Shown here one piece after another: positions 2,603 through 62,100 of a DNA stretch of 64,000 nt. How positions within the stretch are numbered: position 1 is the first letter of the stretch; each line of letters opens with the position of its first letter. The translations under genes and the position numbers were made by a program. A model generated the notes under the pieces. That model was given only the letters and a program-made list of their open reading frames with translations. It was not told where the DNA came from and did no database searches. Source of the stretch: Lunularia cruciata (lineage: Eukaryota; Streptophyta; Marchantiopsida; Lunulariales; Lunulariaceae); the NCBI GenBank assembly GCA_948567375.1, contig OX419758.1:42795473-42859472 (forward strand), given 5' to 3'.

Positions 2603-3366
2603 TTCTTTAGGTATTAGTAACGTCGGAAATACATGAAATTATGACAAATGAACTACAGTGTTCATTATATGACGCTTGAAGCGTAGTCTCTTGCAATCTC
2701 CTATCCATCTCGTCTCCACCCAAGGGCTTGCGATCAAAATTTTGGCCATAGTGGAACTTAATGGTGAGACCCCTTTGAGGCCAGTTTGTTGACAATCCCC
2801 GTAACACCTTCTTCTAAGTGCTTTCCAGTACACTTGTCAGGAGTAGTTTACGGACATCTCGTTTTGACTATAGCTTTTCTTTCCTACATACTTCTTTATT
2901 CACTCGAATCTACATCGAATAGTCTATTTTACATACATCAAGTCCCGTGCTTAGTTACGTACTTCAGAAACCTCTCCCTCAGTTTATAAAAGATATGCAA
3001 CTTAATAACGGAAAATTGGGAGTCTAGATTGTCAAATTATGGTGCAAAAGCTGAAAATACAGAACCTCTGGATAGCTATTGATATGTACATCTCTATCGT
3101 GGGAGAAACAATCGAGTGAGATCCCAGATAAAGCTATAAAAGTTCTGGTTTGCACCAGTTTGCATATAAACCTTCGTGCTGCAGATTCTATACCTTTTCA
3201 CCGTAAGTAAGAACTTGCCACATCTGTGACAGAGTGCTCGATCATACGGAGGAGGACCTTATATGTCAAGTTCGGATTTTTGTGACCACCTAAGAAGGTC
3301 CTCCTTCAGCACACCACGACATAAACAGGCTAAATTTATGCACTTCAATCAACGTCAAGCTGAAGT

Positions 3367-5514
3367 TCAGTAACCTCTGTGACAACAGCCACGACAGCAA
3401 TGGCTATGTACAGAACGTTGATGCCGAGCCACATTTTGCCAGTCGCAGGCCCCTGCAATAACTCTTCTAGAAAGAGCACGGAAGTGACAGCCTTGATGGT
3501 GGATGGGTGAGCAATGGCAGTGACAGGGCGGTAATTGCTGCATCTCTCTCTGTGGTCTGCTTTCAACACTGGATTCCTCCTCTTTAGGACAGGTTATCGT
3601 AACTGTATAATCGGGTGTTCTAGGAGGAGTCGGCTCCCTATATTTAAATTCAACATCCTGCTCTGGGGAACAATTCCATGCTCCATAAGTGTGGCAGTGG
3701 CCCATGCTATTCAGATTCTGTGAGGAGCTTCCCTCTGAGTTGCCTTGCCTGCAAATATTTATCGTAGTAGGAGTAGAGCAATCACTAGATGTATACACTG
3801 TTACATGCGGATGCTGAGGCCTTTGTCTAGCAGGAGCTCGTGATCTACTTTTCGTACTCCTTGGAGTCGCAGATCTAGAACTCGCAGGAGAAAAGTGTAT
3901 AGGGGCAGGCCTTTTCTTACGAACTGGAGTAGTAGATCTCTCGGGGGGGTTACATCCACTAAAATCTATAGCAGGAGTGGGCTGTCTACTCTTAGGAGGG
4001 TAGATCGATCCTGCAAACACAGGAGCCAATTGGCGGGGTGATGGGATGGAAAAGGGGGTGGATCTTCCTGAATTAAATTGTTTTGGACTTGCTTTCCTCG
4101 GAACGATGGCTCTGCTGGCAGGCCTTGAACGGCCTGGGGAAGTATCACAAGACCAGTTTCCATATTCGTGTCTGTGCTTATGCATATTTTTAGGTGGAGT
4201 TTCAACCCCGTATCCATACTTTCGAGAAGGAAGGCACAGTGGCCGTTCCTTACAAGTTTTAGCAGGCACTAATCTGGGGCTTTGCCTATTCTCACGAGAC
4301 TTACTTTGTGGGGAAAGTGATCTGTCCCGATTAATATTTACTGAACCAAGACCCAGATCCTCAACATAAGCTAAACCTCGAGCACGGGCACTGGTGGGAG
4401 GTGATGGTGACCGACTCCCTGCATGGCGTTTCGTCGATGGACAACCACAGGGTTGAAGATTCGGGTCATCATAAATGTATCTCTTATTTTTTGGCCAATC
4501 CTTGTCCCACCATCGCCCTCTTGCAGATTTTCGTTTGGGAGCATAAGTCCATCCAGGAGGAGAGATGGGGCGGATTTCTGGTGTGCCAAAGGGGAATTTG
4601 GACTCATAAAATTCTTGTTTGGATGGAGCCTCTGCCCGGGTGCAGTAAGAATCTGCACAGCTTTCAGTAACCGACTTTGGTGATCCGAGGGATTGTCCGT
4701 TTGCCTGAACTGCAAAATCATGAGCCACTTCTCGTTGTAATTCTTCTGCAAGATCTGTATCTCTCAACGAACTTTCGTATGATTGCCAGTGATGCTCATG
4801 ATCAGCGTCATGATCTACCCACTGATGGACGTGATCCGAGGGACCGCGTCCTTTCTTCGTCATGTGAGGGAGATCTCGCAGAGTGGGACTCACCGGTTCA
4901 GATCGAGATTGGACATTCTGGTGACTGGAGGGTAAAGAGGATGGAGGAGGAGTGGACGATTTTGGCAACTTGATCTTTAGTTTCGCTGGAAGGACTATAG
5001 GAGGGGTATCGGGACGGGGAGATGCTCTAGAAGATTTAAGGTCTGGAATAAAGAGGGTTGCATGAGATGGAAATTGAGTTTGTGATGAAGTTGTTGATGG
5101 AAACTGAGGTTCATGAGCTTGACAATGCTGGGGAGGACTTTGGGGCCTAGTAGATTGATGTGGGGGAGGGGAACTTTGGGGTCCTGCAACTTGATATGGT
5201 GGTGGTGGGTGGTTTCTTCGGACAGGGTGTGGAGGGGATATTGGAGGGTGATGAAACACGGCAGCTTGACGAGGTGTGTGAGGGTTTTGATATCGTTGGT
5301 CCTGCTGTTGAGGGTGATAATTTGGATCCTGCTTCTGGTTAATGCAATCCTGGTTCTGCTGGGTGGGGTGACCAAACTCTCGAACTACAGGGGAACCGGA
5401 ACGACTATGACGACGATCTCTATTGCCCCAACAGCAGGAGATTTCATGTAATCCGGAACTTCTTCCTGTTGCTCTTGGTTTTGGAATACATGGAAACATA
5501 CCCGTTACCCGCAA
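3367..5514 (-). CDS. Unrecognised Pro/Ser/His-rich protein, 715 codons
   Basis: This is the longest uninterrupted frame in the window. The methionine at 5514 is followed five codons later by a second one that begins MFPCIPKPRATGRSS, and either could be the start. The N-terminal 200 residues are rich in Pro, Gln and His. A His-rich acidic patch (DHVHQWVDHDADHEHHW) follows near residue 230. The C-terminal half is Ser/Arg/Pro-rich with many S-P and T-P pairs. Two copies of an HxHxYGxWxC motif (HRHEYGNWSC and HCHTYGAWNC) lie about 200 residues apart. No catalytic domain is visible. The last 60 codons are His/Cys-rich in this frame, while an overlapping frame (3345-3569) encodes a hydrophobic segment, so the true C-terminus may use a splice or frame I cannot fix. 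The composition suggests a disordered regulatory or scaffold protein. The function is unknown. Confidence 0.6.
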   Translation of the reverse strand: MRVTGMFPCIPKPRATGRSSGLHEISCCWGNRDRRHSRSGSPVVREFGHPTQQNQDCINQKQDPNYHPQQQDQRYQNPHTPRQAAVFHHPPISPPHPVRRNHPPPPYQVAGPQSSPPPHQSTRPQSPPQHCQAHEPQFPSTTSSQTQFPSHATLFIPDLKSSRASPRPDTPPIVLPAKLKIKLPKSSTPPPSSLPSSHQNVQSRSEPVSPTLRDLPHMTKKGRGPSDHVHQWVDHDADHEHHWQSYESSLRDTDLAEELQREVAHDFAVQANGQSLGSPKSVTESCADSYCTRAEAPSKQEFYESKFPFGTPEIRPISPPGWTYAPKRKSARGRWWDKDWPKNKRYIYDDPNLQPCGCPSTKRHAGSRSPSPPTSARARGLAYVEDLGLGSVNINRDRSLSPQSKSRENRQSPRLVPAKTCKERPLCLPSRKYGYGVETPPKNMHKHRHEYGNWSCDTSPGRSRPASRAIVPRKASPKQFNSGRSTPFSIPSPRQLAPVFAGSIYPPKSRQPTPAIDFSGCNPPERSTTPVRKKRPAPIHFSPASSRSATPRSTKSRSRAPARQRPQHPHVTVYTSSDCSTPTTINICRQGNSEGSSSQNLNSMGHCHTYGAWNCSPEQDVEFKYREPTPPRTPDYTVTITCPKEEESSVESRPQREMQQLPPCHCHCSPIHHQGCHFRALSRRVIAGACDWQNVARHQRSVHSHCCRGCCHRGY

Positions 5515-12350: not shown

Positions 12351-12565
12351 TACATTTTTATCTTAGTATTGGAACTAATAACATTGAACTACTCATGAGT
12401 GAATATATAATTATAAACCTTGTGACATCTTTAGTTTTACATAAATTAGATAAACTCTAGTCATAAGAAACTCAACTATCAAATACTCGTAAGTACAAAC
12501 AAAATAAGAAGGGTGTGATACACTTAGAACACATTGTAATAACTTTAGACTTATCTTATTAGGGT
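12351..12565. repeat. Dispersed repeat block B (copy 1), left flank of the retroelement
   Basis: This matches about 63420-63660, for example TAACATTGAACTA and GTGAATATATAATTATAAA, and later AAATTAGATAAACT. The match runs up to the AGGGT that directly precedes the retroelement at 12566, which makes it a good left boundary. Confidence 0.65.
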
Positions 12566-13711
12566 TGTCACGCCATTTGTAGTTCCGCATCTAGCTGCTT
12601 GGACACTAGAGTTCCAGTGATAGTAGTTAGAGTTATTCTAGTAGTTTCTCAAGGACTACTTTCCGACAGTCTGATTTGGTGTTCGGGGTACTGTGAGCCG
12701 GCCTGTCTCTCACTCAGGATGAACCTCTGATGGCTATTATGGTAGCGCACCATGGACTAAGAAGGCAAGGAACCCCAACTCCATCATACTCCTCCAAGGC
12801 TAACACTCCAAGACTCAAGACATTGCTCACTAGAGAACTCAATGAGAGAGAGATAGTTGCAAATGAAAGGATGATGAGTACCTCCTCACTCCTTGTTTAT
12901 ATACTTGTGAAATAGTTACGTACCAAAGTTACTAATTACCGTAGTAACTCAAGTTACTAGACTAAAAGTCAAGTAAAGTCAAAAAGTAGAAAGGAATATC
13001 CATTCACATGGGCATATTCCCCTAAGCATGTGGTCTTATCTTGACCCAACCACTAAAGCAAGGATTCCTTCACATGGGCTATCCTTGGACTAAAGAAGAA
13101 TCCAAAACAAAAAGGCTTGCGGGCCCAAGAGTTCTCAACTCTTTCCCCAAAGCCAAACACCTAGGAATAATACCAAGTCAACACACTAAAATCCAAAATA
13201 GTGGTGCTCATCTTTTCTACTTCCTCTAAAGTAAGGTCCCATCTATCTTAGCTATGACTAACTTTAGCTAACCATGACTAATATAGAACCATCCTTTATC
13301 TCTATATAAATAATATCTCTTAAGTACTTGTAATACCAAGCTAAATATCACAATACCACACACATGCACAAATGGGTGTTACAGTACTGACTTCACGGTG
13401 GAGCCCACCGTCACTTTGCACCGTTTGCACCGTCGAGTGTGCCGTCAGCGGGACCGTTAGGGTTCCAGTGCTAGCTCGAGTCCAGGGGGTATAGTTTCAA
13501 AGTGAGCTCCAGAGAGCTCACTTCTTTGATGTTGAGCCTTCGAGTTCCTGGCTATGGTGGACAGAGGCCGACGAGCGTCACTTGGATTCTCTATGCTTGA
13601 GTGGGTGTGGCTTGACTGTAATCAGTGCCCAGTTGTTGGCAGTTTATAGAGTGACAGATCAAGCATTGATCTGAGTTGAGTTGAGTTGAGTTGAAAGTGT
13701 TAAGCAATCTG
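12566..13711 (+). repeat. Terminal repeat A1 (left), interrupted by a nested insertion
   Basis: Begins TGTCACGCCATTTGTAG and matches 22642-23091 closely over about 455 bp once the insertion at 12692-13382 is removed. It ends near CAATCTGATTA. The next bases, CATCAGAG, resemble the 3' part of the usual initiator-tRNA-Met primer site (TATCAGAG). The inverted copy near 50.75 kb begins at the same TGTCA, which supports this left end. Confidence 0.85.
12692..13382. mobile_element. Nested solo LTR of another retroelement
   Basis: About 691 bp starting TGAGCC and ending GTTACA, flanked on both sides by GTACTG; the right-hand repeat A2 has this hexamer only once, at the same site. It holds a TATA-like CTATATAAATAA near 13312, as in plant LTR promoters. 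No internal coding region remains. The element family is not recognised. Confidence 0.75.
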
Positions 13712-15030
13712 ATTACATCAGAGAAGTGAAGTCAAGGGGAAATCGGGTGCAGGAACGTTGAGTGTTGGTGGTATCTCCAAGCTCGGTGGATCGTGGTAGC
13801 TCAATTCAAGTTCTGTGTTTCCCTAGTGTGTAGAAGCTCGTTCAAGTGATGCAGATTTGGCAATTAGGCGGACGGTGTGCGGAAGTGATGGCCAAATTTT
13901 GAGCAAAAAAGGAGCAATTTTTGAGCAGTGTTGTGATTTTGAGCTCAACAGGTGAAGGTAGGACCAATTTGCTACGAGTTGGGCTCAGAAAGTGAAATTG
14001 AAGGTGGAGTTGGGAAGCTCTTCTCATGAAATTGTGATTTGGAAAAACCCGTTTTGTTAATTTGGCTCGAGTGGAAAGTTAGCGGGGGATTTGGCGGACA
14101 GCCATCTTTAGGGTTTACGTCAGATTTTGGAGGAGTTTTTGCTGTTTGGCCAGATTTGGAGGAGTTTTGCTAGTTTGGAGGACTTTTCACAGATTTGGAG
14201 AAGTTTCGCCAATTTTGGAGGAGGTTTCGAAGTGGCAACAAGAAAGGCCTCATTTGGTTGAATTTTGGCGTTTCGAGGCTTCAAGGCATAGGGCTGTGGG
14301 CTATGAGAGGCTACGAAGGCCTAGAAGGGCCAGCAAGCGAACTTGATGGCGTGAGGCTAGCTAGTTTAGAGTAGATCTTGGTCATTGGTTGGCAAAATCT
14401 GCCTTTCTTGCTAGATTGTGCGCAATAGGGTTTGACCCCTAGATCTCTTGTTCCTAGACTGGTGCCCTAGCCAACTGGTCCACCCTCACTTGTTGTCCTA
14501 GTGACTGTGCCACTATTATCTATAGACATGTAGCTTTGGTTAGGAGAGGCAGTTTGATCCCATTCTTGGTGATCCTTGTAGCTTAGGACTTAGATACGAA
14601 CACTCTCTTATGTCAAATGCCAAATGGTGGCAGAGTCAGTCCCGTGTTGTGTTATGAGATGGAGGGTTTTTGTTTAGATTTCTTGTGATTGGATCCCCTC
14701 CATTCTCTACTTCCTGTTTGTGCACCACGTTTGTGTGAGGTGCCCTGACTTTTGAGCGTTGGTGCTCTGGTGTGCTCTGGTGTGCTCTCGATGGTGAAGT
14801 TGGAGTGATGACCAATAAGACTACCTTTGTTTCTCTCCGGTGAGGCAGGAAGTGATGACCTGCAGACCATGAGAGTGCATGTTATGATGGCAGGTTACAG
14901 GTTGCCCTTCCTCTAGTGTAGTTATCTTGGTTAGAGTTACATTAGTGGGTGATGTTTAGTTGGTGTTGGCACGTGGTGGTGTTGGTACTTGGTGGGGTAC
15001 TTGCGGTTGCAGTTGGTGGTTCGGGTTTGA
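13712..15030 (+). other. Retroelement non-coding leader
   Basis: About 1.3 kb between repeat A1 and the gag frame. The part at 14110-14230 contains four or five imperfect reiterations of an AGATTTGGAGGAGTTTTGC-like phrase. A decayed version of the first half occurs inverted at 49800-50430. No conserved protein is encoded. Confidence 0.6.
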
Positions 15031-17150
15031 TGTTGCAGTTACTTGGTCACGACGGAGTTCTTTGGAGATTCCAAAGGAGTTAGCCCTGCAGTACGCAGTG
15101 GGTTTACTCGGAGTGGTGCTCGGTATCAGCCTGTATCTCAGGTCCCAGTGAGGGAGGAGATTGACTCTGAGTTGGAGTTTGACACAGGAGCTGATTCAGT
15201 TGAGAGTGCACTTGGTGTGTCCGCACCGTTGTTGTGGGACATGGACAAGATTTATGGGGCCTCCAAAGGCCCTAGGTGTTACTTTGGTACAGTGGGTACC
15301 ATTGAGTTGGATGACTTCATCTAGGAGTTTGATAGTTGGTGTGATCTACAGCAGATGCGGAACCCAACTTTGTTCACACCCTTCATGGCATGGAAGGGGT
15401 TGTTTTAGCATCTGGAGGGTCTGCCGATGGATGATTACCATGAGTTCAGGAGAGCTCATTTGGAGGAGATTGAGTTATGGAGACAGTATTGGTCTCCACA
15501 CTATGTTTCCATCACTTCAGGCTCGGTGGCCAGGAGTAGATCGGCTGTACCCACGAGTTCTAGCTCGAGTAGTGTTGGTGGAGCTAGTGGAGGTGCACTA
15601 GCTGGAGATAGTGCTACTACGAGTGGAGGTACCGCCGCAAGAGGTGGTGTGGTACCGGGGTTTAACCACATGGTTGAGTTCTTCCTATGTTTGAGGCAGA
15701 AATACCAAGGACTGCGGACTGACAAGCTGAGGAGCTTGCAGGAGTTCCAACAGAAGGCTGGAGAGAGCCTACACGAGGCATACACTTGCATGAGGCGGCT
15801 GATCAGTTTCACTCAGGGAGTTACTGAGGCCCAGGCAATCCAGTTTTGGTATGGGATACTGGATAGGGAGTTGCGAGGTAGAGTTCGTGATGTTACGTTG
15901 TTGCAGGCTACTTCGCCCACTTTGGCAGTAGTCTTTGGTTTGGCTGAGCGTATTGAGCTCAATATGGTGGAGGAGAGAGTGATGACATCTGGATTTGGTA
16001 AGGAGGCCTCATCCACGGCTGTGACTTCTTCTAGAGTGCAGCAGAGTGCACCACGCCCAATTGGTTTTCAAGGACAAGGTGGACAGCCCAGATCCTATGG
16101 AGCGAGTGGAGGGCCTAGTGGAGTTAGACCCTTACCTTTATTTTCAGGTTAGCAGCAGCCAGTGATTGGTGGTGTTGCTTGTTGGACTTGTGGTGGACCT
16201 CACCATAGGAGAGAGTGTACTTAGGGCAGCGGACCTGATACTTCTGGTGCATCACAGCCAACACAGAGGCAGTGTGAGCATTGCCACAGATTTGGTCACA
16301 CTAGTGACCGGTGTTTTGACCTACATCCGGAGTTACGGAGTGGTAGGGCTGTTATGGCAGGTAGTAGAGGAGCTCCAGTTCATGGAGGACGAGGTGGTAG
16401 AGGTGCTGGTAGAGGATCTTTACCTAGTAGGGGTGCAGTACCTGCCCTTACTTCTGACACAGCTATGGCTACTCGGATTGAGCAGTTGGAGCAGAGATTG
16501 GCTAGTATGGCTATTGCTCAGAGGAGATCAGATTCGGGTGCTAAGGCTTCCACCTCATATGCTGGTGATAGAGATGCTTTGGACTTCATGTGCGGAGCAG
16601 CATAGGTGGATGCATCTGCAGCAGTGACTAGGAGTGCAATACGTGCTCCAGAGCCTAGAGGAGCATAAGTGGAGTTGGACCCACAGAGAGGAGAGGTTGG
16701 GAGACAGGTCAGACTTCCCCAGTCTTTCACGCTATCTGAGGCATTGCAGACGACATCCATGGTTCCTAGACGTCCCAGTGCAGGTGTGGTAGGTGGTAAT
16801 GGAGTACCTGATGGACTACCTGCTAGTCAGCCACCTGCTACTACACAGACTGAGTCTAGCATGATGTTGGGGGCGGCTCAGCTGATTATGCGGCATCCTT
16901 TGTTTTCAGCCAGTGACATGTTTACATTGGGAGTTGACCCAGCCCCAGTATTCCGGTTGGTTGCCACGTTGTGTGAGAGTAGGGATGGTGCAGTTCCTAC
17001 TACTAGAGCAGAGGTGGTTGGTAGTGGAGCTGACTTGGTTGAGGAGCATGGGATCCGTTCAGCGACCAGTGGTTTATGGCAGGTGGCAACGGCTAGACTG
17101 GAGGAGTTGCCAACTAGACCGGCCTTTGAGAGAGCGCGGTTTACACTTGG
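15031..17150 (+). pseudogene. gag region with two zinc knuckles
   Basis: A capsid-like helical region typical of retrotransposon gag lies at about 15660-15980 (motifs LRQKYQGL, LQEFQQKAGESL, FWYGILDRELRGRV). Two zinc knuckles follow: CWTCGGPHHRREC (16180-16218, CX2CX4HX3C) and CEHCHRFGHTSDRC (16273-16314, classical CX2CX4HX4C). They would bind the element RNA. An Arg/Gly-rich stretch and a coiled-coil-like segment (IEQLEQRLASM) lie between 16350 and 16510. Stops at 15322, 16150 and 16603 are TAG where Gln (CAG) fits the context. The start is uncertain because an in-frame TGA at 15028 precedes the visible frame. Confidence 0.85.
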
Positions 17151-17560
17151 TGTTGTCCTATTGGATAACCAGAGGGGGATTTTTTGTTTGGTGGGACCTT
17201 CAAGGAAGGTCTATACACCACAGAGAGTCTTGTTAGACTCTGGTGCGCAGCTCCTTATGTTGGGGAAGGCTGCAGTTGTCGGTCTGGAGTTACAAAAGAC
17301 CGATGTGGAGAGGTGTCCATTTCAAATCCATACATCTCTAGGTGGTGGTTCGACATAGTACATCACACGTGGGGAGCTTGTTGTCCATGTTCAGCCTGGT
17401 CATCCGATTGATAGCTCGGTGGTGAGAGCTCAGGCTATTACAACGATAGCTGAGTCATATGATGTGCTAGTTGGAGGAGCAGTGTTATACCCTATGGGTT
17501 TCAACATTGACTATTGGGAGGAGACAGCCTCTTATAGACCTGGTTGGCAGTCTAGTAAGA
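17151..17560 (+). pseudogene. Retropepsin-like aspartic protease
   Basis: The active-site motif LLDSGAQ (DSG at 17236-17244) is followed by LMLGKAAVVGL and, after a TAG stop at 17356, by the flap and second half ending near DVLVGGAVLYPMGF (about 17467). This fits the single-domain protease that cleaves Gag-Pol in gypsy elements. It lies in the same frame as gag and the following methyltransferase, so all three would come from one polyprotein. Confidence 0.75.
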
Positions 17561-17889
17561 GACGGGTATGTCGCCTACCAGTACGCTTCAGTAGTGGCAG
17601 TCTTGGCTCACTACAGTCCGGGACCATGGCAGCATCAGTTTTAGCTTTCAGCGGTGCAGTTACTTGGCCTGGTGACTTGTTGGAGGGGAACGCCCATGTA
17701 GAGGATACTCTAGTACCAGAGGAGATCACTCGGCTTTGGAGTACGAGTGGGATTGTTCCATCCACCTTGGATGTTCCATTGTGGAGTTCAGAGGAGGCAT
17801 TGTAGTAGCATTCAAATCAGTTGGTGCAGTAGGCTTAGAGTGGAGCTTTCGTACCATCAAGGGATGAGTGTGAGGATGAGCCTCCAGAG

Positions 17890-18930
17890 GTGATTGCTTT
17901 GACACCTCTGGATACCACACTCATTGCTTGGCAGTATCCAGTAAAGGAGATATGTCTATTAGAGTTGTTTGGTGGGATCAACACCGGACTAGTTGCGGAG
18001 TTACAGGCGGGTGTACGAGTACAGAGGTACTTGTATGTAGAGAGAGATGAGACTGTTAGGCGAGTCTCTCTACATCATGTGGCACACTTGGCCTATCGGT
18101 ATCCGGAGTTATTACCAATGTCAGCAGTCAAAGGTTACCAGAAGGCCTTACCATGAGACATTTCCTTACTAGGGGTGCATGACCTAGAGAGACATGGGCC
18201 TATTCACTTGGTGATTTCTGGATGGCCATGTTAGGGACATACACGTGCAGGCTGCGGTTTGGGTCTTCAGGATCCTCGTTCTAGTGTGTTTTGGGAGATG
18301 TTACAGATACTACAACATCTCTAGGTTCATCAGTTTGTTTCTCCAACTTACCTTTTGGAGAACGTTCCATTGATGGGTGATTCTTGCACTAGAGTGGTGG
18401 CGAGTACACATCAGGTCCATTCATGGATGGGACCTGCTATATTGTTAGATGCAGCCAGAGTGGGATCACGGGCTCATCGTCTTCATCTTTGGTGGACAAA
18501 CCTCTTACCCAAAGAGGTTCTACAGCGTAGTTATGATGGGATTCAACGACTAGACCACATTCTTGTTGATGATATCTTGGATGCTGGACGTCAGTCTCAG
18601 ATAGTGGTAGTGGCTGATAGGTCACCTATGGTAGTGGTGAACCTAGTTGGACAGCCTAGAGCTGCATTTCCCACACTCATGAGTTTCCCAGGCTCTCATG
18701 CTTTTCGAGATGGAGGACTTGGACTTGTTTGGGACTCATAGTTACAGCAGTTGGTGGAGCCCAACGTTGATGAGAGAGAGCGGGCGATGGGTTTTTGCAC
18801 CAATATTACCGTTGTTCCAGTAGTGTTAGAGGCATCCAGGCGTCAGGTGTTAGGTCAGGCTATGGACCTAAACTGCTTGACCTGGATTGTGAGCCTTGGC
18901 TTGGTAGAGCAGCGTAGGATGCGCTTAATA
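17890..18930 (+). pseudogene. C5-cytosine DNA methyltransferase domain (DNMT3/DRM-like) inside the polyprotein
   Basis: The ordered motifs of C5-methyltransferases are present. Motif I, the SAM-binding loop, is CLLELFGGINTGL (17953-17991), followed by RYLYVERDE as motif II. Motif IV is SGWPC (18217-18231) with the catalytic Cys; the next codon, normally Gln, is TAG. Motif VI is ENV (18358-18366), motif VIII is SRAHRLHLWWTN (18466-18501), and motifs IX/X are ERERAMGF (18772-18795) and GQAMDL (18853-18870). Loops of the FxGIxTG and YxxxE kind are typical of DNMT3/DRM enzymes, which methylate DNA de novo. The domain lies between protease and RT in the same frame, so it was part of Gag-Pol and not a captured neighbour gene. 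Stops (18154, 18232, 18319, 18739) disable this copy. An ordinary host methyltransferase exon is unlikely given the frame continuity. Confidence 0.88.
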
Positions 18931-19233
18931 GGCATCACCACTCGGACACTTGTGAGCCCTGTGCCTATCGAGACGATTCAGGCACATGTTGGGGGCAATG
19001 GACCAAGTGGACATGGTATTCTTGGGACACATCCGGTAGCTACTAGGGAGAGTGGTCTACTTGGAGTCCATCCAGGTGAGTGTGGGCTACTTGGATTACA
19101 CCCTTGGTCCACATGGGATGCAGCCAGAGGACGTGTGGGGCTTGCAGCCAGAGTGGAGGGAGTTTTTCACACTGAGGTTGGGACCTCTAGTGGTCGGGAG
19201 CATGACACTATTGCTCCCAAGGGCCTAGTGTAG

Positions 19234-20740
19234 CAGTCAGTTTGTACGTCTTCCACTCCTACTACAGTTACAGAGGATACTTGGGAGCCAGATCTTGGAC
19301 CCAAGCTTACTGGAGAGGAAAGACGGAGGGTTTGGAGGTTCTTGAGGAGTCACACGAGTTGTTTTGCCTTCAATATGAAGGATTTGGGTGCTCTGAAGGG
19401 ACCTGGTATACGGATTGAGCTGACTAGCTACACACCAGTTTTCTGACGTCCTTATCAATATAGTGAGATAAAGAGGACATTGATTTAGAGCCGGAGTAGT
19501 GACCTTTTTGAGGTTGGTTTAGTGGAGATTTCACATGAAGAGTATGCATCAGCAACAGTGATGCCAGCCAAGAAGGATATGCATGGCAACTATACAGATA
19601 GGCGGATGTGTGGAGATTACCGTCCTATCAACCGATAAACCAGGGCTGATTGGTATGCCATGCCTACACCAGAGGAGATTTTTGATGCAATTGGGCATGG
19701 AAAGGTCTTCAATACTTTGGATCTTCAAGCGGGATATCATCAATTGCCAATTAGAGAGGAGGATAAGTCCAAGACAGCATTTTGGGCTATTGCTCCTCAC
19801 GGCAAGGATGTGTTATATTAGTGGAGGTTCTTACCATTTGGGTTGAAGAGCGCTCCTGCTGAGTTCCAGAGGGTCATGGATAGGATCCTAGCTGGATTGG
19901 ATTTTGCTCGGTGCTATATTGATGACATTTTAGTTTATAGCACTACCGTGGAGGAGCATGAGAGACAATTGTTGGAGGTGTTTGAGAGGTTGAGATCTCA
20001 TGGACTCAAATTACATCTTGGGAAGTGTAGGTTCTTCCACGAGCAAGTTGAGTATTTGGGTCACACTATCTACCCCGGAGGACTTGGTGTTCAGCAGACC
20101 AAGGTGGACGCTATTGCACGTATTCCTTGGCCTCCGGATCTGAGCAGAGTGCGAGCATTCCTTGGGTTGGCAAACTTCTATCACCGCTATGTTAGAGGAT
20201 TTAGTGCCATTGCCAAGGCCTTGACAAAGCTGACCAAGCTTACACAGGAGTGGTGTTGGGGAGATGAGCAGGAGAGAGCTTTTGTAGAGCTCAAGGAGAG
20301 GTTGACATCTGCTCCTATTTTGAGAAGACCGATCAGGGGATGACCATTTCAGGTTCACACTGATTGGAGTATGTTGGGGCTTGGAGCGGTGCTCATCCAG
20401 CATGATGATGAGGGGAAGGAGTTTGTGGTGGCCTATGCTAGTCACTCCAACAATTCAGCGGAGGCAAAGTATAATTCATATGAGGGAGAGTGCTTGGCAG
20501 CAGTTTGGGCAGTAGCACATTTCCAATGTTACCTATTTGGTAACCCCTTCACTCTCATCACTGATCATCAGCCGCTGAAGTGGTTGATGGAGTCCGACAA
20601 GCTTTCAGTGAAGCTTGCACGATGAGCTCTGATTTTACAGGAGTATGATTTCACGGTTGTTCACAGACCTAGAGTGGTGAACCGTGATGCAGATGGGTTG
20701 AGTAGAAACCCATGTCCCAGCCAGCAGGATCAGACCGGAG
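19234..20740 (+). pseudogene. Ty3/gypsy reverse transcriptase and RNase H
   Basis: RT motifs run in order: PTPEEIFDAIGHGKVFNTLD, RFLPFGLKSAPAEFQRVMD and the catalytic YIDD at 19915-19926, then HLGKCRFF, YLGHTI and FLGLANFYHRYV. RNase H shows VHTDWS (about 20353), YSSYEGE-type spacing (NSYEGECLAAVWAV) and LITDHQPLKWL. The frame is that of gag. Stops within it are mostly C-to-T type: CGA to TGA at 19444, 20341 and 20623, CAG to TAG at 19486 and 19819, and CAA to TAA at 19636. It would copy the element RNA into DNA. Confidence 0.92.
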
Positions 20741-20999
20741 CATATTGGCATGGTGAGATAGATGAGGAGATGGTGCCAGGTTGGCATGCATCGGCCTTTT
20801 TGTGTATATTTGCAGAGGCTTTGGTGGTATCTCTCTCAGTGCATACAGGAGGAGTTATTGAGGTCACAGATCCAGAGAGTGAAGATATTGGTACAGTTCA
20901 GCAAGACATTCATGATGATGTCTTAGTGATGGACTATCTTTGCATTGGTGCTGTGGGTGGCACAGTTGGGGCCAAGGAGAGAGACCGTGTTCTTCAGTG

Positions 21000-22150
21000 A
21001 GCCAGACGATTCAGATTGGAGGGTAGACACGTTTTGCGTGTATGGGAGGATGGTAGAATGCGAGTAGTACCACTTCCATCTCAGAGACCACAGTTGGTCC
21101 GTCATGCTCATGAGGAGCTAGGACATTTTGGAGTAAAGCATACGTATAGCTTACTTCAGAGTCATTATTGGTGGCGCGGTATGCAGACCAAGGTACATTA
21201 GTTTGTTGCCAGATGTGTGGTTTGTGACCGAGTTAGAGCATCATTCAATGCTCCTACGCCACAGTTACACCCATTACCTATCATGGGATTGGGTTACCGT
21301 TGGAGTTTGGACTTTGCCGGACCTAAACCGCTGACTGTGAGACATCATCGGTATGTTTTGGTGATGGTGGAGCACTTCTCCAAGTGGATTGAGTTGGTGG
21401 TACTTCCTGACAAGTCTAGTGAAGGGACATCTTACTTGTTCTTGGATCAAGTTCTTAGTCATTTTGGTGCACCAGCTGAGGTTTTGACTGATTAGGGTAT
21501 GGAGTTCTTGGGAGAGTTTAAGGTCTTGTGTCAAGGCTTTGATTGATCATCATATCACATCCCGAGATCACCCTAAGGCAGATGGCTTAGCAGAGAAAGT
21601 GGTTCAGACGGTTAAGAGAGGATTGTGAAAGTATGGTTTGCAAAGAGGCCACTTGGGAGATTGGGATCTCCAATTACCTTGATTGGCCATGGGCTATCGG
21701 TTCAGCCGGCAAGCCTCCTTAGCATCCTTCTCTCCATACTTTCTACTCTATGGACGAGATCCAGATTTACCTGCAGCCATTTGTCGAGATGCTACTGTAG
21801 TTTCGGACTTGGATGACCCCGATGTATGGATGAGCGCATGTTCTCAACGGGCAAAGATCTTTCGGAGAGTGATGTCGATGGCCTTTGAGAACTTAGCGAT
21901 TGCTCAGCATAGAGATACTTTACGCTATGCTACCATTCGAGGAGGAGGTTATAGATCCTCGATCCGTCAATTTCATCTAGGCAATTATGTATATCTATAG
22001 CAGACAGCACCGACGACACTTGATGTTTCTACAGGTCGCACTATCTTGAGAGTGCATGAGGTTTTGCCATCTGGAGTCCTTGTGTTAGAAGGACGTGATG
22101 GTGTTGTTTGGAAGGATCATGTGCGCAATTGTGCGCCATGCCACCTCCCA
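21000..22150 (+). pseudogene. Integrase (HHCC zinc domain and DDE core), frameshifted
   Basis: The zinc domain is HEELGHFGVKH ... CVVC (about 21110-21228). The core has Asp in WSLDFAGP (about 21301) and Asp in VLTD (21484-21492) followed by a TAG. A one- or two-base loss near 21530 moves the rest to another frame, where the expected Glu is found in AEKVVQTVKRG (about 21591-21623). The C-terminal barrel region reaches about 22150 (YGRDPDLPAAI, LEGRDGVVWKDHVRN). No chromodomain follows; a PHD finger takes that position. Confidence 0.88.
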
Positions 22151-22204
22151 AACATTGATGGTACTATGGACCCAAGCTTGGCACTTGTACGTGCAGGCTT
22201 GAGG

Positions 22205-22336
22205 TGTATGTTGTGTGGCTCTTTTGGTGGAGCTACTATGTTAGTGTGTGATAGTTGTTCGAGAGGATGGCATATGGCATGTATGACTCCTCCCCTCACG
22301 GTGGTTCCTCAGAGACAGTGGTGATGTCCTAGATGT
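22205..22336 (+). pseudogene. C4HC3 PHD finger at the integrase C-terminus
   Basis: Cys pairs at CMLC (22205) and CDSC (22247), His and Cys in GWHMAC (about 22265-22282), then a final WxCPRC pair at 22325-22336, just after a TGA where Trp is expected. The spacing is that of a PHD finger, a module that reads histone H3 tails. Its place after the integrase matches that of the chromodomain in chromoviruses, so it may steer integration to particular chromatin. No frame change separates it from the integrase tail. Confidence 0.85.
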
Positions 22337-22498
22337 ACTTGACCTATAGCCAGTTCATTCTTTTTATGGTATAGATTGTAGACAGGCGACTAACGATGGG
22401 GCTCCATAGCACCCAGCCTCCTGATCTTTGCCCATTAGAGGGTATACCATATACTTAGAGTAGATGGCTATTTGGAGTTAGAGGGACCTAACCGCCAG

Positions 22499-22641
22499 CT
22501 AGGGGGGCAATTGTGGCACTTTAGAGTCTATGTGTGAGTTGTGCTTCTATAGTGTATGATGTTGACAGCGATGTATGTTGTGTAGCGATGTATGTTGTGT
22601 AGCGATGTATGTTGTGTAGCGATGTATATACGCATGACAGC
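22499..22641 (+). repeat. Polypurine tract and repeat B1
   Basis: AGGGGGGCAA at about 22500-22509 looks like the plus-strand primer tract. Directly after it, TTGTGGCACTTTAGAGTC begins a 130-bp segment (B1) that recurs at 23092-23196 (B2) but is absent from the left end. B1 contains three and a half copies of a 17-bp minisatellite unit, GATGTATGTTGTGTAGC, at about 22570-22628. It ends at the palindrome TGACAGCTGTCA that overlaps the start of A2. Confidence 0.75.
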
Positions 22642-23091
22642 TGTCACGCCATTTGTAGTTCCGCATCTGGCTGCTCGGACACTGGAGTTCCAGTGATAGT
22701 AGTTAGAGTTATTCTAGTAGTTTCTCAAGGACTACTTTCTGATAGTCTGATTTGGTGTTTGAGGTACTGACTTCACGGTGGGGCCCACCGTCACTTTGCA
22801 CCGTTTTCACCGTCGAGTGTGCCATCAGTGGGACTGTTAGGGTTCCAATGCTAGCTCAAGTCCAGGGGGGTATAGTTTTGAAGTGAGCTCTAGAGAGCTC
22901 ACTTCTCTGATGTTGAGCCTTCGAGTTCTTGGCTATGGTGGACAGAGGCCGGCAAGCGTCACCTGGATTCTTTATGTTTGAGTGGGTGTGACTTGACTGT
23001 AATTAGTGCCCAGTTGTTGGCAGTTTATAGAGTGATAGATCAAGTACTAATCTGAGTTGAATTGAGTTGAAAGTGTTAAGCAATATGATTA
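22642..23091 (+). repeat. Terminal repeat A2
   Basis: Matches A1 from TGTCACGCCATTTGTAG to CAATATGATTA, with differences mainly of the C/T and G/A kind. It has no nested insertion and so gives the original sequence at the insertion site in A1. Confidence 0.88.
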
Positions 23092-23196
23092 TTGTGGCAC
23101 TTTAGAGTCTATGTATGACTTATGTGTGAGTTGTGCTTCTATAGTGTATGATGTTGACAGTGATGTATGTTGTGTAGCGATGTATATACGCACAAC
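23092..23196 (+). repeat. Terminal repeat B2 (right end of the element)
   Basis: A second copy of B1 with fewer minisatellite units, ending GTATATACGCACAAC before the flank AAGGTTGACTTCC. Its position outside A2 produces an A-internal-B-A-B layout. Confidence 0.75.
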
Positions 23197-23560
23197 AAGG
23201 TTGACTTCCATTTTTGTTTAGTTGTAAAAAATTAAAAAAAAAATCAATATCTGTTACAGATTCTATGGATTGTTGGAAAGAATCATCACATCAAGTTTCC
23301 CTTTGGCCATTTTTAAATACTTAAATAAAAGTAACATGAGATTTGTGAGATGTCCCATAGATTGTTAAGAGGTGTGAGAAAATAGATCCTTTTTTATGGG
23401 ATCTACTCCCTAACCCTATAAAGATTAACGGATCACAATTTTCATGACCCATCAACTTTTTCCATTTACATGATGACTTGTAGACCACATGGTGCAAAAA
23501 ATTGGACCAAAATTGACACCAAACCAAAAGATGATTTACTCTATTTTTTATATACCTATT
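23197..23560. repeat. Dispersed repeat block C (copy 1), right flank of the retroelement
   Basis: Matches about 63660-63900, for example GAGATGTCCCATAGATT at both sites. With blocks A and B it makes a collinear paralog of the last kilobase of the window. It is AT-rich and has no coding signal. Confidence 0.65.
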
Positions 23561-59100: not shown

Positions 59101-62100
59101 TTAGGTTTCTACACCTAGTTCCTCCAAATGCTTGGTTAAAATCTCAGGACAAGAATCTGCTCGCAGTAGCTCGAGTCCGTTTGCAGCTGGTATGAATCGT
59201 AACAAGTAATCTTCATCTGAACCATACGAGATACGTGATGGATCAGTCAACAATTGAACATTCAGGTATATTCTACAAAAGAATGCATGTTCTACATACA
59301 GACTATCTTCTCCATTTAGAAAGAACTCACTTTCCTTTACGCTGCCATACAGCCAGCGAAAGACCTGGTCAGCGAATGCCAGGCAAACACCACCCTGTCA
59401 TACGCCACCCGGATGTTAGGCACACAACGAGAGGAGTAATGAGTTCATAAAGGACAAAAAGGTTTAATTTCTGAAACATAGAACTGTAGTTCGAATGAGA
59501 TAATTTCTTGGCTTCCTCTTGACTCCTCCTTCCCTTCCTGTCCTCGTGGAAATCCTCCCAAACGTCGTAAGAAAAGGTGAAATAACATTACCTCCCAAAA
59601 GTGCTTGGCTATTACTCTCTGTGTTATTTCCTTTGTGCTCATCATTTCCGTGCGCACAAGTCTGCCTTCGTCGTCCCTGCATACCAGCACGGAATCCCAC
59701 ATCAGAGTGAAGAACAATGAAATCAGAACGCGCATTAAAATTTGAACCAATTTGAACATAGACTAAAATCTCCAATGCGTACCTGAATCCACAAACGATT
59801 CGTGGCACTCCTGCCAAGAATGACTGAATCTGCAGATGAAAACCACCGAATTGAAACAAGTAGAGATTAGTCCCTAGAAATTTCCAAATATAAAAAAATA
59901 AACGTCGTCGTTCCACGTGTAGAACCTGGAAGATTTTATAATATTCGTCATTTTATTTCATTAAAACCAAATCAATTAGAACAAAATACACCCTGCCTAA
60001 TAATATACAGGCGCTACGAGATTCTTAGCTTCCTGGTATCTCTGCCGGCTCCAAGATTTTCTTAGCCAAATTGCTGAGAAAGAAAGGTCTAGAGACATCT
60101 TTGCTTTCACAAGACTTGGTATACCAAGAACGCTTCTTGCCACGAACTACGCGACCAACCTCTGCCGCCTCCGGTCTATACCGTCAAAGTTCATAGAAGA
60201 ATGTTGTTACTGACCCAAAATTTAAGTAGCTTATCCTTCTCAAACCGGTCCACCGTGCGGGCATCAAGCTGGACAGATAAACGATCAATCAGTAAAGACC
60301 GCACCTAGAAGGCAGAAAGAACTCGAGCACGACAACATGTGAGAAAGGATACAGGATACGAGACCAGATACAGATGGAAGTCACTGAAGGCATGAGGAGA
60401 TGCTATCGTTCTAACCTCACGACTGGTTTTCAGCTCGATGTAACTCTTTTTCCCATCTCGTGAATACGCATAGCAATCCATTTCCGCACCCATAACAATC
60501 TGATGGGGGCCAAGCTCGGTGCGAAGAACTGCACAATACTTCACGTTGGCATCCACGACAGTTTCTTCATCACTACCTCCTCTCATTCCTACCCCATTGG
60601 CAGATTTAGAGGAACTGCGTTGTTCAGTAGCCAACCGCTCAAAGGAATAGCCCCAATAGCAACTGTGCGAGCCGATAAGAATATAATTATTGAAACTACG
60701 TAGATAGCCTTCATAACATCGTCCGATGTTTTCTATTCTTGATTTAGCAGGCAATAAGTGGGCCATTAGGATCCTGGAAGTAAGAGAAAGGCCTATCTGG
60801 AGGACATAACGCGTCAGAAATGGATCTTGAAGATAAAAAAGGTTAATCGAAGAAGCTTCGGTCTAGACGTTACTCACCACCTTCGGTGCCGCTCAGATTG
60901 ATTCATTTCCGGTATCTTGCGCACATACAGGTATACAGTGCCACGCCTTTTGTGCACGCCCATCTCCCATGGATGAAGTCTATCGTAAGCCGTTCCCATA
61001 ATCTGCGATGAAACAAACCTACCTTGAATTCTTTCTTCGTTTCCCAACAAGTAACTCATCGACACGAAAAAGACTTCAAATTTGCCCTGGACTATAGTGA
61101 AGCTTGACAGATTGTCGCCCTACACACGCGGTATATTCCAAACGTCCAGAACCCACGAAATGCAGGTTCAGGATACACTTCACAGGAGCGATAATTCAAG
61201 ATGCTGTATCAGTTCCATGATAAACCTTTGCACATGCCAGGACAAATCCCCGGAGGATCTGCAGAACTGGCTCAGGTTGCCGCGCAGCTCCTCACCTTAT
61301 TCAAGTTGTTGCGAAACGTCTGCGACACCACGCGACCCGCCCTATCAATAACTATGATGTCAGGATCATGGTTGAGGGGCCTCACAAACACCGCAGGTAT
61401 TCTAAATGGCATCAGCCTGATGCTTCATAACAAAAAGTCCATCCAAGGGCACAGCTACTTGCCACGAAGTGAATGTTGTCAAGAGGAGGTCCCTTCTTTC
61501 GCAGGCAAGCCAGCAAATCTCCGAATTCAGAGCCTTCAGTATCGGTAACAGTGCGAGCAACGGTTCTAATGAGAGAAATTATTATCGAAGTGACAAATTG
61601 CCCATGTAAAAGCATGGCATGTAAAAGCAGTCGAGTCTTTGACCCAACGTTGACCCAATGTAAAGGCATTCGCCAGTACCTTCCTCCTTTTCGACGTATG
61701 ATTCAAAGCCTTCATTTAAATCAGCCCCATACTCTTTCAAGATTCCAGCTCGGAAACGTCTCTGCAAGATCAAATTCAGGTTTTAATGACAGCTCCACAA
61801 GACTTGTATAAGTAATAGGCTAAAGTAATCATACAAATCCTAGAAAATGAGAATGCTTTTACAAGCGCAAACAACAAGGCCAGAAGCTAACGAATAGCAC
61901 AAATTCCACAAGAAGTACACAGTTAGGCGTGGACCTTTAAGTTACAAGTTGATAAACTGTTCTATTGCATGCAGACTTGCTCTGTCTAGTTGAAGTTGGT
62001 TTCTATTGGCCAAAAGCCCTATATTTATGCATCGAATCTCCAAATGCAAAACATGATCGTATTGTGAAAATTTGTTACCAGGCTCCGATCGTCCATATGC

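What the first reader, a model, noticed from the sequence alone, without database searches (positions are those of the whole stretch)
17890..18930. A DNA cytosine methyltransferase built into a plant Ty3/gypsy polyprotein
Seen: C5-methyltransferase motifs I, IV (SGWPC), VI (ENV), VIII and IX/X lie in order between the protease (DSG at 17236) and the reverse transcriptase (YIDD at 19915), all in the same forward frame as gag. Known: catalysis in this family uses the Cys of the PC motif; the GIxTG and YxxxE features are typical of DNMT3/DRM de novo enzymes. As I recall, retroelement-borne methyltransferases are described in dinoflagellates and a charophyte, not as a usual land-plant feature. Inferred: the element could methylate its own cDNA or its surroundings, perhaps to escape or exploit host silencing.
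Basis: partly seen in the sequence, partly recalled or inferred. Interest (0 to 1): 0.96.

Follow-up and report, generated by a model that had tools for sequence, protein, structure and literature searches.

The report
DNA-methylating jumping gene in a liverwort
A retrotransposon present in thousands of copies in a liverwort-like plant carries its own DNA methyltransferase, extending to land plants and other green organisms something reported in print for one related alga, and it has an unusual coding layout and an unusual arrangement of its ends.

Summary
Window 12566-23197 is a decayed copy of a Ty3/gypsy-type element. A C5-cytosine methyltransferase (17932-18951; best structural match DNMT3A/B) lies between protease and RT in the gag frame. 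It is not a one-off: the host genome (566 Mb, liverwort-like by its own DNMT3 gene) has 3,017 matches to the methyltransferase motif-IV 30-mer. Ten of ten further copies, chosen by their RT, carry it.

An in-frame TAG followed by CARYYA, a known readthrough context, separates it from RT-RNaseH-IN-PHD; TAG stands in 708 of 724 junction matches. (2) It evolves about as slowly as PR (omega about 0.4), unlike the linker behind it (0.8-1.1). (3) Relatives occur in Marchantia, Sphagnum, three green algae and metagenomes; the transposon methyltransferases put in a tree form one clade, with two insertion positions. (4) The repeats are split (A-internal-B-A-B), with 4-bp target duplications in 11 of 14 copies.

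Precedent: KnitGypsy-Dnmt3 (PMC5890265). Most likely the enzyme is packaged and methylates new cDNA before integration. That step is inferred, not shown.

The parts
12566..23197 (+). whole element copy, termini TGTCACGCC...ACGCACAACA; flanks GGGT (12562-12565) / AGGT (23198-23201), a 3-of-4 match to the 4-bp target duplication seen in other copies
12566..13714 (+). repeat A1 (5' copy), interrupted by a nested insert
12692..13383 (.). nested 692-bp insert with TG...CA ends flanked by GTAC, probably a solo LTR of another element
15241..19230 (+). ORF1 frame Gag-PR-DNMT from Met to the junction TAG; 15 in-frame stops in this copy
   Evidence: open 1428-codon frame in L009 and L010
16237..16446 (+). 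zinc-knuckle region of Gag (CxxC...H...C, by eye; no Pfam hit)
17017..17646 (+). aspartic protease region, DSG at 17236
   Evidence: motif by eye, no Pfam hit or 30
17932..18951 (+). C5-cytosine methyltransferase domain (motifs I, IV GWPC 18220, VI ENVP 18358, VIII, X near 18784); four in-frame stops here
19231..19239 (+). TAG CAG TCA = UAG-CARYYA type readthrough context separating ORF1 from Pol
   Evidence: motif definition PMC3542737 and PMC4132726
19507..20091 (+). reverse transcriptase, YIDD at 19915
20242..20646 (+). RNase H (Pfam match from copy L010, placed here by alignment)
21067..21724 (+). integrase (H2C2 zinc finger and rve core in L010; rve piece in the window below its cut-off)
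22190..22339 (+). PHD finger at the C-terminus of Pol
   Evidence: E 1.6e-7; E 6e-11 in L010
22501..22507 (+). polypurine tract AGGGGGG two bases before repeat B1
22510..22641 (+). repeat B1
22642..23090 (+). repeat A2; the B1-A2 junction ACGCATGACA-GC-TGTCACGCC is nearly palindromic
23091..23197 (+). repeat B2 (3' end of element)

Best explanation
A decayed copy of a large, recently active family of Ty3/gypsy-type retrotransposons that carry a DNMT3-like cytosine methyltransferase. ORF1 makes Gag-protease-methyltransferase; a UAG-CARYYA stop is read through at a low rate to add RT-RNaseH-integrase-PHD (inferred from sequence). So the methyltransferase would be made in Gag amounts and carried into the particle with the genome RNA and cDNA (inferred). 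There it most likely puts methyl groups on newly made double-stranded cDNA, probably at CG (inferred from the Symbiodinium precedent, not tested), so that the DNA enters the nucleus already marked. Linear cDNA with B-A repeats at both ends is joined into a two-repeat circle and the integrase opens it at the internal B|A junction, giving A-internal-B-A-B flanked by 4-bp duplications (inferred from junction variants). The PHD finger probably guides integration by reading histone tails (inferred).
For: Domain set. Copy number: 3,017 DNMT and 3,676 RT 30-mer places at up to 2 mismatches. DNMT present in 10 of 10 RT-chosen copies. TAG in 25 of 25 copies, followed by CARYYA in 23 of 25; TAG in 708 of 724 exact-flank matches genome-wide. 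dN/dS of DNMT 0.34-0.44, PR 0.36-0.42, RT 0.27-0.35, linker 0.83-1.10. In an alignment of 143 rows (142 relatives and L009) the catalytic Cys is kept in 137 of 137 readable rows, motif VI Glu in 140 of 140, the second motif VIII Arg in 141 of 141. Transposon DNMTs one clade: 103 rows, 16 rows at 100/100. Both positions of the domain (before RT in 31 of 142 proteins, after RNase H or directly before IN in 111 of 142) keep it in a polyprotein, which fits action in the particle or on cDNA. Split repeats, 4-bp duplications in 11 of 14, variant A2|B2 joins in 3 of 19, one with 5 nt from the primer-site side and one with 1 nt from the polypurine side, against no length variant at the three other joins.
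Against: No activity, packaging, readthrough or methylation was measured. 20 of the 25 copies examined have a stop or gap in the DNMT, including L026, the youngest of 15 by A1-A2 divergence, so a cis-acting DNMT is not needed for each insertion. Copies L009-L011, with long ORF1, do not have a wholly open Pol next to it. Two of 25 copies lack CARYYA. Motif I Phe is Cys in 45 of 139 rows and motif IV Pro is Glu in 57 of 138. No stable RNA structure lies behind the TAG (z +1.0 to +1.8). Copies decay at CG and CHG sites, so they are probably silenced by the host (not polarised by an outgroup). L020, L026 and the window lack an exact duplication.
Confidence: 0.55

Rival explanations
1. The enzyme acts in trans on host chromatin: it methylates surrounding genes or competing elements, changing the host epigenome to the family's benefit.
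For: Catalytic Cys, Glu and Arg kept in every readable row; thousands of copies; PMC5890265 discusses host-wide effects in Symbiodinium.
Against: Its place in Gag or Pol ties it to the particle. Stand-alone forms were not searched for.
Confidence: 0.17
2. The domain no longer methylates DNA; it is kept as a nucleic-acid-binding or structural part of Gag, or methylates RNA.
For: In 57 of 138 readable rows the motif IV Pro is Glu, an unusual change; SymbioLINE-Dnmt did not methylate DNA in yeast (PMC5890265 Discussion).
Against: Cys, ENV Glu and motif VIII Arg are invariant in readable rows, beyond what binding alone would need; the liverwort copies keep Pro-Cys.
Confidence: 0.15
3. The TAG is not programmed: Pol is made by another route (re-initiation, splicing), and the CARYYA match is chance.
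For: A 9-base motif is short; no downstream RNA structure; the Marchantia and Sphagnum gene models P0006 and P0022 join across this place as if by an intron (seen by eye; annotation, not RNA).
Against: TAG in 708 of 724, while 119 of 129 other stop positions are shared by at most 3 of 25 copies and the commonest by 10; frame kept on both sides; exact type I context in 23 of 25.
Confidence: 0.15
4. Passenger: a methyltransferase picked up once and carried along without use.
For: 20 of 25 copies have lost the DNMT frame.
Against: Purifying selection like PR, unlike the adjacent linker; one clade spanning liverworts and green algae.
Confidence: 0.04

Closest known systems
KnitGypsy-Dnmt3 of Klebsormidium nitens (de Mendoza et al. 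2018, PMC5890265; abstract, sections 9 and 11 and passages seen)
   Same: Gypsy domain composition, DNMT3-type unrearranged methyltransferase in the coding region, DIRS-like repeat structure, purifying selection, several copies
   Different: Here in a land plant in thousands of copies; DNMT on the Gag side of a conserved readthrough-type TAG; PHD finger, which its main text does not mention (0 occurrences; its Fig. 4c is not held); relatives in green algae argue for an older capture than the K. nitens lineage. Its sequence was not retrieved here, so kinship is not shown by a tree.
SymbioDIRS-Dnmt3 and SymbioLINE-Dnmt of dinoflagellates (same paper)
   Same: Retrotransposon-borne methyltransferase; the DIRS type is reported to methylate CG
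   Different: Unrelated retroelement orders, DIRS or LINE machinery instead of a DDE integrase
Plant chromoviruses (Ty3/gypsy with chromodomain; recalled)
   Same: Ty3/gypsy Pol with a chromatin-reader module behind the integrase
   Different: PHD finger instead of chromodomain; extra methyltransferase; split repeats
PAT/DIRS-type elements with split direct repeats (recalled; PMC4157794 seen in a search listing only)
   Same: A-internal-B-A-B repeat order, taken to mean a circular intermediate
   Different: Integrase with 4-bp duplications; no tyrosine recombinase seen
UAG-CARYYA readthrough of TMV and other plant viruses (passages in PMC3542737, PMC4132726); MuLV gag UAG pol (PMC4178896, start of abstract in a listing)
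   Same: In-frame stop between upstream and polymerase reading frames with type I context
   Different: Readthrough not measured here; in a retrotransposon, behind a methyltransferase

Membership tests
Ty3/gypsy (Metaviridae) | Pol order RT-RNaseH-integrase | tested here: met
Ty3/gypsy (Metaviridae) | TG...CA termini and short (4-5 bp) target duplication | tested here: met
   11 of 14 exact 4-bp duplications; window 3 of 4 bases
Ty3/gypsy (Metaviridae) | two identical long terminal repeats | tested here: not met
   A1-internal-B1-A2-B2; so filed as gypsy-type with split repeats
Ty3/gypsy (Metaviridae) | tRNA primer site behind the 5' repeat | tested here: inconclusive
   ACATCAGAG behind A1, only a partial match to the initiator-Met site as recalled
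KnitGypsy-Dnmt3 lineage | DNMT in the coding region of a Gypsy element | tested here: met
KnitGypsy-Dnmt3 lineage | DIRS-like (split) repeats with Gypsy domains | tested here: met
   against the legend of Fig. 4
KnitGypsy-Dnmt3 lineage | DNMT groups with the K. nitens transposon DNMTs in a tree | not tested
DNMT3-type C5 methyltransferases | motifs I, IV, VI, VIII, X in the unrearranged order with catalytic Cys | tested here: met
DNMT3-type C5 methyltransferases | fold closest to DNMT3A/3B | tested here: met
   P0007 model (mean pLDDT 57.6); sequence
DNMT3-type C5 methyltransferases | tree position inside DNMT3 | tested here: inconclusive
   retro clade 100/100 separate; DNMT3 rows (83/64) and prokaryote-type rows (100/98) lie on other branches, root unknown. 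DRM was only; CMT and DNMT1 were in neither tree
DIRS/PAT elements | tyrosine recombinase | tested here: not met
   Pfam finds a DDE integrase and no recombinase at E<=1 in L009 ORF1 or L010 ORF2
Type I stop-codon readthrough | UAG followed by CARYYA, conserved | tested here: met
   (23 of 25)
Type I stop-codon readthrough | measured extension past the stop | not testable with these tools
   needs a reporter assay or proteomics

The most novel reading that the evidence does not exclude
An old clade of green-lineage gypsy-type elements carries its methyltransferase inside the particle, marks its own cDNA before integration, and integrates from a two-repeat circle opened at a nearly palindromic B|A site. 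In the land-plant branch the enzyme stands on the Gag side of a readthrough stop, raising its dose.
Probability: 0.3. Interest if true: 0.88.

Novelty: new variant of a known kind. Interest (0 to 1): 0.74.

Why it matters
Transposons carrying their own cytosine methyltransferase were described as independent cases in dinoflagellates and one charophyte. Here one such clade spans liverworts and green algae (with a moss relative) and is present in thousands of copies in one land plant, which makes the question of why an element would carry the host's silencing mark testable in Marchantia, a laboratory model that has relatives of it, and its kin. The readthrough stop and the split repeats give concrete, checkable mechanics for dose and integration.

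Tried and rejected
Rejected: recent capture of a host exon; chance motif match; plain LTR element; a conserved RNA structure behind the TAG (three sequences, none folds better than shuffles). A scan of viral contigs with P0015 found no relative. No tRNA gene by ARAGORN and no Rfam match at gathering scores in the window. Alternative genetic code not pursued: 197 of 237 other stop cells are CAG to TAG or CGA to TGA, and most positions differ between copies.

The first dN/dS script stopped on a division error and was rewritten. Its gag figure (0.28, 5 open of 25 copies) is from the part that ran.

The tree set was thinned: 142 transposon proteins, 133 with a domain of 230-520 residues, 102 kept plus L009 (Sphagnum P0022 is not among them). 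The careful tree used 16 transposon rows, 14 DNMT3 and 21 prokaryote-type rows. The RT tree used 5 rows of the first type and 55 of 83 of the second, plus 4 ungrouped. In one search row P0092 (a fish protein) was wrongly labelled bacterial; corrected. The 24 fetched copies were picked from PF00145 matches, so they lean to better-kept DNMTs.

Full report
What is there. The window lies at G000:C7:42795473-42859472 of a 565.8-Mb genome in 74 contigs. The host's own unrearranged DNMT3 gene (L001) is closest to Marchantia DNMT3b at 65%, with Riccia and Calypogeia among the next best, so the host is probably a liverwort; no name is given by the tools. The element spans 12566-23197. Its own pieces match RT (E 5e-21), integrase (E 3.6e-6, below the cut-off) and a PHD finger (E 1.6e-7); RNase H and a full integrase are clear in copy L010. 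The methyltransferase of this copy carries four stops, and its pieces do not reach Pfam on their own, but open frames of other copies do. The best PDB matches are DNMT3A by sequence (L006) and DNMT3A/3B by fold, using a model of the Marchantia relative P0007 with mean pLDDT 57.6.

It is a family trait. PF00145 gave 123 matches in the genome, most at one profile range. The 30-mer over motif IV occurs at 3,017 places with up to 2 mismatches, the RT 30-mer at 3,676, with 0 for both reversed controls. If those were all full length they would be about 5-6% of the genome; truncated copies lower this and more diverged copies raise it. Ten RT places on C1, taken from those with no exact methyltransferase 30-mer in the printed list beside them, all hold methyltransferase sequence at the expected distance (10 of 10; 314-601 aligned bases at 95-99%).

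Coding layout. L009 and L010 have an open ORF1 of 1428 codons that ends 93 codons after my domain boundary, then TAG. Pol follows in the same frame: 468 codons directly in L011; in L010 966 codons that begin 71 codons after the TAG, behind another stop; in L009 Pol is shifted. So none of these three has both parts wholly open. All 25 copies examined have TAG at the junction; 21 continue CAGCCA and 2 (the window and L012) CAGTCA, both CARYYA; 2 do not fit. Genome-wide, exact flanks with any codon give 724 matches, with TAG 708. CARYYA is the known stimulator of readthrough in TMV and other plant viruses (PMC3542737 and PMC4132726, passages). No strong RNA fold follows.

Selection. Pooled pairwise dN/dS: DNMT 0.44 over all 25 copies and 0.40 over the 5 open ones (0.36 and 0.34 with CpG codons left out); PR 0.41 both ways; RT 0.27-0.33; integrase 0.34-0.50; PHD 0.50-0.64; linker between DNMT and TAG 0.83, or 1.10 without CpG codons, in 23 of 25 copies. 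Pairs are not independent and the method is simple (Nei-Gojobori).

Relatives. Two protein searches (in one search only the 8,000 best word-sharing candidates were scored) gave 142 distinct transposon proteins. Named hosts are Marchantia (14 of 46 rows), Sphagnum fallax, Monoraphidium neglectum, Cymbomonas tetramitiformis and Chlamydomonas eustigma; most others have no host shown, and one (P0228) is labelled as from a bacterial MAG, which I take as misbinning. In 111 of 142 the domain lies after RNase H or directly before the integrase (both where the protein is complete enough); in 31 of 142 it follows PR or precedes RT, 22 of these ending with the domain. The DNMT tree has all 103 transposon rows on one side of a branch (100; 100/100 for 16 rows). 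Within it 16 of 18 rows of the second kind form one clade (97), while P0044 and P0046 branch outside it. The RT-RNaseH tree instead puts those two with the liverwort rows and splits by position (99). One old capture and a later move is the simplest account, but that conflict, the direction of the move and horizontal transfer are not resolved. The catalytic Cys is present in 137 of 137 readable rows of 143; the Pro before it is Glu in 57 of 138, and the motif I Phe is Cys in 45 of 139.

Ends and replication. Fifteen of 25 copies show all of A-internal-B-A-B; four more show B-A-B with A1 not found; the other six are cut by the end of the fetched stretch or are truncated; none shows a B behind A1. 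Termini TGTCA and C(G/A)ACA, with exact 4-bp duplications in 11 of 14 copies, show integrase-type insertion at these termini. A polypurine tract lies two bases before B1 and a primer-site-like sequence abuts A1, so the repeat made by reverse transcription should be B-A, not A-B. Of 19 A2|B2 joins printed, 15 are standard, 1 (L019) has the same length with substitutions, and 3 differ in length: L026 (+5, bases of the primer-site side), L029 (+1, the base of the polypurine side) and L015 (+1, source unclear). The 18 A1, 18 B1 and 17 B1|A2 joins printed show no such length change by eye. This is what ends joined anew at each event would leave. Hence the proposal: two-repeat circle, opened at B|A. 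KnitGypsy-Dnmt3 was reported to have DIRS-like repeats too.

Age and decay. A1-A2 divergence over 15 copies runs from 0.002 (L026) to 0.087 with median 0.025; the window (0.087 over 335 sites) and L020 are the most diverged. Stops other than the junction TAG are mainly CAG to TAG (146 of 237 cells) and CGA to TGA (51); taking L009 as reference, the window has T for C (or A for G) at 12.1% of CHG, 10.7% of CG and 2.7% of CHH sites. That fits host CG and CHG methylation of inserted copies; direction was not polarised.

Prior work. de Mendoza et al. 2018 (PMC5890265; abstract, sections 9 and 11 and passages seen) describe KnitGypsy-Dnmt3 and the dinoflagellate elements, state that SymbioDIRS-Dnmt3 enzymes methylate CG, and already propose cDNA methylation. 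PMC12344493 (section 5 and passages seen) repeats the streptophyte and dinoflagellate cases, calling them Copia and DIRS. I saw no paper on such elements in liverworts, mosses or chlorophytes, nor on a readthrough stop or PHD finger in them, in the listings of searches; several listings were cut to the top rows, and that library lacks most subscription papers.

Verdict. The kind is known; the land-plant spread, the scale, the Gag-side position behind a readthrough-type stop, the single green-lineage clade and the circle-type ends are the new parts.

Noticed in passing
12692-13383: A 692-bp insert with TG...CA ends and GTAC duplication sits inside repeat A1, probably a solo LTR of a different element.
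   Followed up: partly
P0203, P0236, P0244 and other proteins: Algal relatives have Glu-Cys instead of Pro-Cys in methyltransferase motif IV (57 of 138 readable rows), with the other catalytic residues kept; effect on activity unknown.
   Followed up: no
L026: The youngest of 15 copies by A1-A2 divergence (1 difference in 447) already carries two stops in the DNMT that are shared with other copies, which suggests that defective copies are mobilised in trans.
   Followed up: no
59467-60766, minus strand: Two open frames matching RAI1 (PF08652; E 1.3e-23 for one, 5e-4 and below cut-off for the other), a probable host gene.
   Followed up: no
L001, L004 and L002: The host has a DNMT3-like gene, a second DNMT3-like fragment and a rearranged DRM gene, apart from the transposon copies (by eye).
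   Followed up: partly
window 3370-5514, minus strand: A 715-codon open frame without any Pfam match at E 0.01.
   Followed up: no
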